Assembly (NCBI GenBank): GCA_944324115.1
Contig: CALUVB010000004.1
Location: 1-64,000, forward strand
Reading direction: 5' to 3'
Origin: an uncultured Elusimicrobiales bacterium
Lineage (GTDB): Bacteria > Elusimicrobiota > Elusimicrobia > Elusimicrobiales > Elusimicrobiaceae
Length of the DNA stretch: 64,000 nt
Shown here one piece after another: positions 45,256 to 47,975 of the stretch. The translations under genes and the position numbers were made by a program. The first letter of the stretch is position 1; each line of letters begins with the position of its first letter. Under the pieces are notes generated by a model, which searched no databases, was not told the origin of the DNA, and was given only the letters and a program-made list of their open reading frames with translations.

Positions 45256-47619
45256 CTACATCATATTGGAAACGTTGAAGTAGAAATGCGAGCGGTCCTC
45301 ATTACTCTTATGGTTCAAGCCGTAGCCCCAGTCAATGCGGATAGGCAGCGACGGCGTGGTTAAACGCAAGCCCACCCCCACGCCGGCCTTGAACTGATTT
45401 TCGTCTGGGCCGAGCGAGAAGTTTACATCATCAAAATGATTCCATGAATTCCCTAAGTCAAAGAACAAAGCAAATTGAGCCATCGTGCGCCGCCCTTCGC
45501 GCGCCAGCGGGAAGCGCAGCTCCGCATTCATTACATAGTAGGTGGTGCCGCCGTATTCGGGGCCCACTTCTCCGGCGCGGTCATAGCCGCGTACGGTGTC
45601 GGCGCCGCCTAAGAAGAATTTTTCATACGGAGGCACTTCATCGGTGCGGCCATAAGCGCGCACGGCGCCTATTTTGTTGGACAGCACAAACACAATAGGG
45701 TAATTGCCGCCTACGTTCCACACGGTATAGTTAAAACTGGAGGCGGCATTTAAATACCACAAATCCAAATCTCCGCCAATCGGTCCGCCGGCCAAAGAAA
45801 GCCCCAGTGAATTACGCCAGCCGCTGGTCGGGTCCCAAATATTGTCGCGGGTATCTATGGCAAAGTCTGCCCCCAAGGTGGACATATAAGTGTCTCCTTC
45901 AGGAATACAGGCATAAGAGGGCACGTCGGGACCGCATTGGAAGCGTTCTTCAATATCGTAAATATCAATATTTTCAAAGGCATAGCTGAAGCTTAACTGG
46001 TAGATATCGTCATTAAAACGCGGGCCTACGCGCACACGCCCACCGATACGTTTCTCCGTATAAGCCTGGTTGTCATCGGCAAAAGAACGGTAGCGGCGGG
46101 TATTAAACAAATCCACCCCCAAAGAGGTAGGTTTGTCATAGATCCACGGGGTTGTCCAGCTGACGGTATAATCCAAAATTTCTTTACCGAACATGGTGCG
46201 TAAAGACAAACGTTGCGCCCGTCCAAAAAGATTCATATGGTTAATAGACACTTCCCCATACAACCCATCTAACGAACTCATTGCCAAGCCGGCCGTAAAC
46301 ATGCCAGGGCGGCCTTCTACAATATTAAAGCCCAAATCCACTTTCTGCGGGTCTGCGGTAGGCTGTATGTCCACTTGTACGTCATTGACGAAGCCTAAAT
46401 TTAAAATTTTGGACTGGCTGCGCTGTATTTTTTGGGAATCGTATAAGTCTCCGGGTTTAATGGAAATTTCCCGCGTAAAGACATATTTTTTTGTTTTTTC
46501 ATACCCGGTCACGTCTACATGGTCTATATAGAAGATATTCCCTTCGGAAATATCATAATTTACGTTTAAACGGCCGTCTTCTATAGTAGTTTGTGGGTCT
46601 ATGCGCACTTGCAGATAGCCCCGGTTGGCATATTGTTGCTGGATAGCGGAAATGGTATCATCAAAATCTTTTTGGTTATATAATTTGCCTTCCCGCAGAT
46701 AGACATATTTGTCCAGTTCTTGGGTGGAGAAAACATTGTTCCCTTCAAAAGAGACAGTCCCAAAGTCCACTTTTGGGCTTTCCGTGGCGGTGTAAGAAAT
46801 GGAGACTTCCGTTTTCTCGTCATTTAAGTCAATTTGCGGCTGGCTTAAATTGAACTCGGCATAGCCTTCATTGCGTGCATATAAAATCATTTTTACCCAA
46901 TCGCGCTGCAGATTTTGGGGTTTGAATACTTTGTCGGGGCGGTTGGAGGCTTTTTTGCGTATTTTTTCCAGCGGCAAGGGAGTATCTTCCGGCAGGCCGT
47001 TTAAATTCAGCGCCGCTACGCGCACGCGCGGGCCTTCATTTATAATTATTTTGACGGTAACCGTATTGGTTTTTTCATCGGGGATTACTTCGTAATTTAC
47101 TTCTGCGCTGATATAGCCTTTTTCGGCGTATTTGGCTTTGATTCGTTCCAAGTCGCTTGCCAGCTTGGCTTCATTGAACGGGTCTTTTACTTTCAATGTC
47201 ATCGCGGAAGCAATGGCGCTTTTCCCTAATTTTTTGCGGCCTTCATAGATAATGCGGTCAAAAATCGGTTTTTCTTCTACGATATAAGTAATGCGGTGGC
47301 AGGGCAACGCTTGGCCGCTTTCATCTTTGCGGGTGCCTTTCATGCGGGACACGTCTACTTGTACACTGTCAAAATTGCCCAGCGCCGATACGTCCATAAT
47401 GTCTTCATTGACGCTGTAGCGTTCATATAATTTGCCTTTTTCGGCATGGGCCGCTTTGGTGACGGTGCGTTTGCTTATATTTTTCAGCCCGTCAACAGCC
47501 ACATCACAAACCATCCAGGGGCCGTTGGGATCAATATCGTCGGCTGCGTCTTGAGCGCAGAGCGTAACAGGTAAAATAAGAGCCGCCAGCCAAAAGGCCC
47601 ATTTAGTAGAAAGAGAAAT
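45256..47619 (-). CDS. bamA: Outer membrane protein assembly factor BamA (probable ATT start)
   Basis: Inserts beta-barrel proteins into the outer membrane. POTRA domains occupy about residues 30-430 (VDGLKNISKRTVTKAA, RIIYEGRKKLGKSAIASAMT, FGTVSFEGNNVFSTQELD, HVDVTGYEKTKKYVFTREIS). The barrel follows, with the Omp85 motif FFLGGADTVRGYDRAG and a C-terminal strand ending FYFNVSNMM. The first ATG (47514) would omit a signal peptide. The same frame continues upstream for 35 codons, encoding STKWAFWLAALILPVTLCAQ, an excellent signal peptide. It holds no ATG, GTG or TTG before a stop. ATT at 47617-47619, 4-6 nt after GAGGGGTG, is the best start. 787 residues with that start. Confidence 0.9.
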   Translation of the reverse strand: MSLSTKWAFWLAALILPVTLCAQDAADDIDPNGPWMVCDVAVDGLKNISKRTVTKAAHAEKGKLYERYSVNEDIMDVSALGNFDSVQVDVSRMKGTRKDESGQALPCHRITYIVEEKPIFDRIIYEGRKKLGKSAIASAMTLKVKDPFNEAKLASDLERIKAKYAEKGYISAEVNYEVIPDEKTNTVTVKIIINEGPRVRVAALNLNGLPEDTPLPLEKIRKKASNRPDKVFKPQNLQRDWVKMILYARNEGYAEFNLSQPQIDLNDEKTEVSISYTATESPKVDFGTVSFEGNNVFSTQELDKYVYLREGKLYNQKDFDDTISAIQQQYANRGYLQVRIDPQTTIEDGRLNVNYDISEGNIFYIDHVDVTGYEKTKKYVFTREISIKPGDLYDSQKIQRSQSKILNLGFVNDVQVDIQPTADPQKVDLGFNIVEGRPGMFTAGLAMSSLDGLYGEVSINHMNLFGRAQRLSLRTMFGKEILDYTVSWTTPWIYDKPTSLGVDLFNTRRYRSFADDNQAYTEKRIGGRVRVGPRFNDDIYQLSFSYAFENIDIYDIEERFQCGPDVPSYACIPEGDTYMSTLGADFAIDTRDNIWDPTSGWRNSLGLSLAGGPIGGDLDLWYLNAASSFNYTVWNVGGNYPIVFVLSNKIGAVRAYGRTDEVPPYEKFFLGGADTVRGYDRAGEVGPEYGGTTYYVMNAELRFPLAREGRRTMAQFALFFDLGNSWNHFDDVNFSLGPDENQFKAGVGVGLRLTTPSLPIRIDWGYGLNHKSNEDRSHFYFNVSNMM

Positions 47620-47644
47620 AACCCACCCCTCTGATTATATTCAA

Positions 47645-47678
47645 TAAAAAGCCCGCGCAGCAGCTGCAGCGCGGGCTG
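47645..47678 (-). terminator. Terminator of rpmB
   Basis: Stem AGCCCGCGC / GCGCGGGCT with a 10-nt loop and TTTTTATT on the minus strand. Its end is only about 26 nt from the proposed bamA start. Confidence 0.88.
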
Positions 47679-47711: not shown

Positions 47712-47906
47712 TTATTTGGCCGGTCTTTTGGCCAGTCCGCTTTTAATGCAGTTGGTGCACACGTAGGCCGTCTGCGTTTTGCCTTCTAAAACCACTTTCT
47801 GCTTTTGCAGGTTGGGGCTGAAGGTGCGTTTCGTTCTGAGGTTAGAGTGGCTGTAAGAACCGCCGGATACGGGGCCTTTGCCACAGATTGCACATTTATA
47901 CGCCAT
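47712..47906 (-). CDS. rpmB: 50S ribosomal protein L28
   Basis: 64 residues. MAYKCAICGKGPVSGGSYSH, NLRTKRTFSPNLQKQKV and VCTNCIKSGLAKRP are typical of the C+ (zinc-binding) form of L28, with Cys pairs CAIC and CTNC. A structural protein of the large subunit. Single-gene unit with its own terminator. Confidence 0.97.
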   Translation of the reverse strand: MAYKCAICGKGPVSGGSYSHSNLRTKRTFSPNLQKQKVVLEGKTQTAYVCTNCIKSGLAKRPAK

Positions 47907-47975
47907 AAATTCCTTCCTTATACAATGAATTAAATTGGGTTCTTATATTCTAGTAAATATTCAAGCTTTTGTCTA

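What the first reader, a model, noticed from the sequence alone, without database searches (positions are those of the whole stretch)
47511..47640. bamA signal peptide reachable only from an AUU start codon
The frame upstream of the first bamA ATG encodes a textbook signal peptide (STKWAFWLAALILPVTLCAQ) that BamA needs. Between the upstream stop TAA and this peptide there is no ATG, GTG or TTG. ATT at 47617-47619 has GAGGGGTG 4-6 nt before it. AUU starts are known for infC and pcnB, where they allow control by initiation factor levels. A TATAAT at 47634-47639 would give a leader of only ~8 nt, and the rpmB terminator lies just behind. An essential gene starting at AUU would be a notable control point.
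Basis: partly seen in the sequence, partly recalled or inferred. Interest (0 to 1): 0.62.

Follow-up and report, generated by a model that had tools for sequence, protein, structure and literature searches.

The report
Essential bamA gene starting at AUU
In this gut bacterium and its closest relatives the gene for the essential outer-membrane assembly protein BamA seems to start at AUU instead of a normal start signal, and other species of the same genus use ACG, TTG, GTG or ATG there, which points to a weak, adjustable start for an essential gene.

Summary
In the window, bamA (minus strand) has an in-frame TAA at 47635-47637, then no ATG, GTG or TTG until beyond the signal peptide. ATT at 47617-47619 is the only codon one base away from ATG before the hydrophobic core, and a ribosome-binding site lies 4 nt upstream. 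It is not a base error: all nine genomes (ten rows) of the window's clade in Candidatus Avelusimicrobium have ATT here. Across the genus, 19 of 65 junctions (18 of 64 genomes) have no canonical start: 14 with ATT, 5 with ACG. The others use ATG (18), TTG/GTG (27) or ACG/GTG (1). Neighbouring genes always have a canonical start, and in a survey of 298 own-genome genes bamA was the only clear case. In 65 of 65 junctions the bamA start lies 13-36 nt behind the rpmB terminator. A promoter-like site is conserved upstream of rpmB (33 of 33 loci tested) but not of bamA (2 of 33). Most likely bamA is made by terminator read-through and throttled by a weak start. Regulation by IF3 is untested. The proposed TATAAT promoter is not supported. 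Precedents exist (infC, pcnB, sigR, cvfC1); none for bamA was found in the searches made.

The parts
47617..47619 (-). ATT, the proposed start codon of bamA
   Evidence: Only near-cognate codon between the in-frame stop and the hydrophobic core; identical in 10 of 10 rows of the clade; TTATT columns invariant in the 9 aligned sequences
45256..47619 (-). bamA coding region from the ATT to the stop codon (787 codons plus stop)
   Evidence: Pfam Omp85 and POTRA; frame read; listed from the internal ATG at 47514
47554..47619 (-). signal peptide, up to LCA|Q (judged by eye)
   Evidence: translation; no signal-peptide program was available
47624..47631 (-). Shine-Dalgarno sequence GAGGGGTG, 4 nt before ATT
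   Evidence: sequence; predicted pairing with the anti-SD -11.6 kcal/mol; the 16S tail GGCTGGATCACCTCCTT is found in 16 of 66 genomes including G068 of this clade, not in G000 itself
47635..47637 (-). in-frame TAA that closes the bamA frame upstream
47646..47676 (-). rpmB intrinsic terminator: hairpin 47676-47651 and T-run 47650-47646
   Evidence: sequence; fold -22.7 kcal/mol; a 3' arm with T-run at this place in 65 of 65 junctions by pattern; terminator activity not tested
47712..47906 (-). rpmB, ribosomal protein L28, upstream gene
   Evidence: Pfam Ribosomal_L28; ATG at the start in 58 of 58 loci
47947..47975 (-). promoter-like site TAGACA-17-TAGAAT upstream of rpmB, the proposed source of bamA mRNA
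   Evidence: 1 found, 1.6 expected in shuffles, so weak alone; a site of at least 9 of 12 at this place in 33 of 33 loci

Best explanation
bamA in this genome is translated from the AUU at 47619-47617. The gene has no promoter of its own: transcripts from the conserved promoter upstream of rpmB that read through the rpmB terminator carry bamA, whose ribosome-binding site begins about 15 nt behind the T-run. A strong Shine-Dalgarno sequence then directs initiation at a weak codon, so BamA output is kept far below that of ribosomal protein L28. Across the genus the start codon has moved among ATG, GTG, TTG, ATT and ACG, which fits a tunable set-point. Shown here: the sequence facts, their conservation and the absence of a canonical start. 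Inferred: that AUU initiates, that read-through supplies the mRNA, and that the weak start is selected for lowering output. Dependence on IF3 is expected from other bacteria and was not tested.
For: Closed frame with SD, ATT and signal peptide. ATT in 10 of 10 rows of the window's clade, branch support 99, although silent sites of bamA in these genomes agree with the window in only 48-62% of cases. 19 of 65 junctions without a canonical start (corrected); the label needs 7 changes on the tree against a minimum of 11 in 500 shuffles. Neighbours always canonical: rpmB 58/58, terC 55/55, skp 22/22, lpxD 59/59. bamA the only clear case among 298 surveyed genes. Start 13-36 nt behind the T-run in 65 of 65; promoter-like site before rpmB in 33 of 33 loci, before bamA in 2 of 33. 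Precedent: conserved AUU and AUA starts with an extended SD in S. aureus (PMC13009471, passages).
Against: No translation or transcription data. Within the clade 4 of 27 conserved Ile columns of BamA are also uniformly ATT, so the unchanged third base alone is weak evidence. In G075, G083 and G084 the ACG that follows ATT lies at a better SD distance and may be the start. 18 of 65 rows keep ATG, so a weak start is not required in the genus. SD strength differs between ATG and weak starts (p 0.005) but only 2-3 independent pairs exist on the tree. infC of this genome has ATG, so no IF3 feedback through an infC AUU is evident.
Confidence: 0.72

Rival explanations
1. AUU does initiate, but the weak codon is only tolerated. 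With a strong SD and an abundant rpmB transcript, selection on the start codon is relaxed and it drifts among near-cognates without regulatory meaning.
For: Five different codons at one site within a genus; strong SD at weak starts; ATG kept in 18 of 65 rows.
Against: ATT unchanged in all 9 genomes of the clade while silent sites are strongly diverged; no such drift in four neighbouring genes, including rpmB on the same presumed transcript.
Confidence: 0.3
2. The AUU is a sensor: IF3 represses it, so BamA synthesis follows initiation-factor activity, as for infC and sigR.
For: IF3 represses non-canonical starts in E. coli and Streptomyces (PMC5472188, passages).
Against: Many species of the genus use canonical codons at the same site; infC here has ATG; no expression data.
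Confidence: 0.2
3. Translation starts elsewhere: at the internal ATG 47514, at CTG within the signal peptide, or by a frameshift from an upstream frame.
For: ATG 47514 is the first canonical codon; in many relatives the frame is open upstream towards rpmB.
Against: Starting at 47514 removes the signal peptide; a hydrophobic signal peptide is kept in every junction read. The window and G034 have in-frame stops a few codons upstream with the SD in between. CTG lies inside the hydrophobic segment without an SD at the right distance.
Confidence: 0.06
4. Base error or decayed gene in this assembly.
For: The window comes from a genome of 25 contigs; reads were not available.
Against: The same codon in nine genomes of the clade from several assembly projects; the BamA frame has no inner stop in them.
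Confidence: 0.02
5. One reading: own promoter TATAAT 47634-47639 with an ~8 nt leader.
For: The hexamer is a perfect -10 match.
Against: Absent in relatives; no -35 reported there; it would start the RNA within the SD.
Confidence: 0.03

Closest known systems
infC (IF3): AUU start in E. coli, ATC in Streptomyces, AUA in S. aureus (PMC5472188, PMC13009471, passages)
   Same: Near-cognate start codon in an essential gene; conserved
   Different: infC encodes the factor that discriminates against its own start; BamA has no such role, and infC in this genome has ATG
pcnB of E. coli (AUU start; named in PMC9410913, passage)
   Same: AUU start that limits output, no autoregulatory logic known to me
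   Different: Nonessential gene; one species group; no terminator link known to me
sigR of Streptomyces (GTC start repressed by IF3; PMC5472188, passages)
   Same: Weak start lowers a protein relative to its operon partner; conserved in a genus
   Different: GTC, a sigma factor, and proven by experiment; here rpmB and bamA encode unrelated functions
cvfC1 (AUU) and ccpN (AUA) of S. aureus (PMC13009471, passages)
   Same: Conserved near-cognate start paired with a strong SD
   Different: Small or regulatory proteins; nothing on terminator read-through or ACG in the passages seen

Membership tests
Genes with AUU or other near-cognate starts (infC/pcnB/sigR kind) | No ATG, GTG or TTG that could start the conserved protein | tested here: met
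   closed frame in the window; 19 of 65 junctions
Genes with AUU or other near-cognate starts (infC/pcnB/sigR kind) | Near-cognate codon at SD distance | tested here: met
   GAGGGGTG 4 nt before ATT
Genes with AUU or other near-cognate starts (infC/pcnB/sigR kind) | Conserved among relatives | tested here: met
   10 of 10 rows in the clade; not in the whole genus
Genes with AUU or other near-cognate starts (infC/pcnB/sigR kind) | Initiation at the codon shown by mutation, N-terminal peptide or profiling | not testable with these tools
   no expression data
Genes with AUU or other near-cognate starts (infC/pcnB/sigR kind) | Repression by IF3 | not testable with these tools
   no expression data
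BamA (Omp85) | POTRA repeats and Omp85 barrel | tested here: met
   4 POTRA stretches, Omp85 463-785
BamA (Omp85) | Sec signal peptide | tested here: inconclusive
   clear by eye; no predictor available
Intrinsic terminator after rpmB | GC-rich hairpin followed by a T-run | tested here: met
   one search lists a partial stem at this place
Intrinsic terminator after rpmB | Terminates transcription, with read-through into bamA | not testable with these tools
   no RNA data

The most novel reading that the evidence does not exclude
The bamA start codon of Avelusimicrobium is an evolvable dial: the genus feeds bamA from a ribosomal-protein promoter through a leaky terminator and sets BamA output by swapping the start among ATG, GTG, TTG, ATT and ACG while adjusting the SD. 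In the near-cognate species this makes outer-membrane assembly sensitive to initiation fidelity, and it includes natural ACG starts of an essential bacterial gene.
Probability: 0.28. Interest if true: 0.8.

Novelty: new variant of a known kind. Interest (0 to 1): 0.6.

Why it matters
Few bacterial genes with near-cognate starts have been characterised (the sigR paper says so), and gene callers limited to ATG, GTG and TTG cannot see them. Here an essential envelope protein would lose its signal peptide in such an annotation, in at least 18 genomes. The genus offers a natural series of five start codons at one site, so the link between start codon, SD strength and output of an essential protein can be tested directly with reporters.

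Tried and rejected
Sequencing error: contradicted by nine genomes with ATT. TATAAT promoter with an 8 nt leader: not conserved; on the bamA side a promoter-like site of at least 9 of 12 is found in 2 of 33 loci.

General relaxation of start codons: 298 genes compared with G068. 74 were flagged with 6 or more aligned residues before the first canonical codon. By eye only bamA and one other ORF (o1605) lacked a canonical codon at the aligned start of a convincing gene; o1605 proved to have an ATG in another frame, so it looks frameshifted. Several flagged short ORFs look like shadow frames and were not resolved one by one.

Known RNA element: Rfam gave only hits below the gathering scores at the junction. 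A regulatory fold between the terminator and the TACGCGCGCGCG motif of other species: folds of 24 junctions gave no consistent alternative structure, and the window's bamA lacks the motif. SD strength as compensation for a weak start: Mann-Whitney p 0.005 for ATG against ATT/ACG, but only 2-3 independent pairs. A long 16S tail pattern found 0 of 66, a shorter one 16 of 66. The SD energies used a wrong ATG for G009, G017 and G069; one search corrects them.

Literature: bamA with non-AUG and start codon, 2 papers, unrelated by title and abstract start; non-canonical or ATT start codon with outer membrane, 18 papers, none on bamA by title and abstract start; Avelusimicrobium 2 papers (listing only); Elusimicrobium minutum with start codon 2 papers (listing only). 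Only open-licence papers are held, so absence in print is not shown.

Full report
What is there. On the minus strand the window carries rpmB (47906-47712), a GC-rich hairpin with T-run (47676-47646), then bamA. The bamA frame is closed by TAA at 47637-47635 and reads TCA GAG GGG TGG GTT ATT TCT CTT TCT ACT AAA TGG..., a signal peptide ending in LCA|Q, before the first ATG at 47514. The protein from ATT is BamA by Pfam and the only BamA match in the own genome. Between the stop and the hydrophobic core ATT is the only codon one base from ATG.

Which organism. The named relatives are MAGs of Elusimicrobiales or Elusimicrobiaceae, many from gut, rumen or faeces by their titles, one titled Candidatus Avelusimicrobium excrementipullorum. 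The genus holds 66 genomes in the collection, all with BamA. Junctions could be read in 65 rows from 64 genomes: in G001 the gene's 5' end is lost at a contig end, and G020 has only the C-terminal part. G010 contributes two rows and is probably a mixed bin.

The comparison. Labels assigned by eye: ATG 18, GTG 5, TTG 22, ATT 14, ACG 6 (G031 also has GTG two codons later, so 5 are ACG only). A mechanical count found 20 of 65 rows without ATG, GTG or TTG between the terminator or last in-frame stop and the hydrophobic core. One of these, G002, is a false call because its TTG was taken as core, leaving 19 rows (18 genomes). In a tree of 61 BamA proteins built without the signal peptide, the window's clade (10 rows, 9 genomes) is all ATT with support 99. 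ATT recurs in G028 and in G075, G083 and G084; in the last three the ACG that follows ATT lies at a better SD distance and may be the start. ACG-only rows lie scattered in a third region of the tree; G022 is not in it, for lack of a full gene. The canonical/non-canonical labels need 7 changes, against a minimum of 11 in 500 shuffles. The sister genus g12 has rpmB, terminator and bamA in the same order with ATG (2 of 2 read). One of these is a single contig of 1,643,562 bases, the size I recall for Elusimicrobium minutum.

Controls. In 61 loci given, rpmB (58 of 58 found), terC (55 of 55), skp (22 of 22) and lpxD (59 of 59) have a canonical codon within 10 codons of the aligned start; the gene names skp, lpxD and terC are mine from context. 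In 371,096 bases of the own genome (of 1,527,951), 298 genes with a relative in 800 kb of G068 were examined; bamA was the only clear case of conserved coding sequence reaching past every canonical start (limits in Tried and rejected). infC of this genome has an ATG. So this is a property of bamA, not of the organism's genes in general. A point against over-reading: within the clade 4 of 27 conserved Ile columns of BamA are also uniformly ATT, so the unchanged third base alone is weak evidence. The strength lies in the closed frame, the SD, the signal peptide and the recurrence.

Expression anatomy. In 65 of 65 rows the start follows the terminator T-run by 13-36 nt, which leaves no room for a sigma-70 promoter wholly after the terminator. 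A promoter-like site about 45 nt upstream of rpmB is present in 33 of 33 loci tested (33 chosen from those held; a few are duplicates of one species), but on the bamA side in only 2 of 33. The TATAAT of the window is absent in relatives. I infer that bamA mRNA is rpmB mRNA that passed the terminator. The predicted SD pairing is stronger at weak starts (mean ATT -10.7, ACG -10.2, TTG -10.2, GTG -9.6) than at ATG (-7.9 kcal/mol). The difference is significant by rank test but not on the tree, where only 2-3 independent pairs exist.

Mechanism. Most likely a strong ribosomal-protein promoter, cut down by a terminator and again by a weak start, sets a low BamA level. Shown: sequence, conservation, controls. 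Inferred: initiation at AUU, read-through, selection for low output. IF3 repression of non-canonical starts is described for E. coli infC and Streptomyces sigR (PMC5472188, passages). In S. aureus, conserved AUU and AUA starts pair with an extended SD, and a passage reports approximately 10% of the AUG reporter expression (PMC13009471, passages). In E. coli only infC and pcnB are said to start at AUU (PMC9410913, passage). The Avelusimicrobium case would work like these; whether IF3 acts on it is open.

Novelty. The kind is known. New here is an essential outer-membrane assembly gene (essential in other bacteria, by general knowledge), a genus-wide turnover among five start codons including ACG, and the tie to a ribosomal-protein terminator. 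My literature searches found no report on bamA, in an open-licence library only.

Noticed in passing
bamA signal-peptide end in other species of the genus, e.g. L017, L031, L024; not in the window's own bamA: In 41 rows with the residues Y-A-R-A the codons are TAC GCG CGC GCG in 40, although GCG is not the commonest Ala codon and none of 16 other conserved Ala columns is invariant in 39 species. With a TCN codon before it the motif occurs mostly once per genome, usually in bamA. A constraint on DNA or RNA seems likely; an alternating pyrimidine-purine run could favour Z-DNA. Unexplained.
   Followed up: partly
L114:1650-1980 (own genome C1, minus strand): A secreted-protein gene whose ATG lies in another frame than the rest of the gene, as if frameshifted near the signal peptide: a real mutation or an assembly error.
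   Followed up: partly
L002:1501-1525 (own genome C1:21645-21669): An intergenic 25-base stretch 96% identical to the end of the bamA signal-peptide coding region, near a gene that looks like tgt by eye.
   Followed up: no
G010 (L006 and L033): Two different BamA genes with two rpmB copies in one bin, one nearly identical to that of G034: probably a mixed bin.
   Followed up: no
L172-L188 (genus g15 of the family): In this genus rpmB keeps a terminator but is followed by other sequence, often a sigma-factor-like gene (by eye), not bamA, so the rpmB-bamA order is not kept across the family.
   Followed up: no
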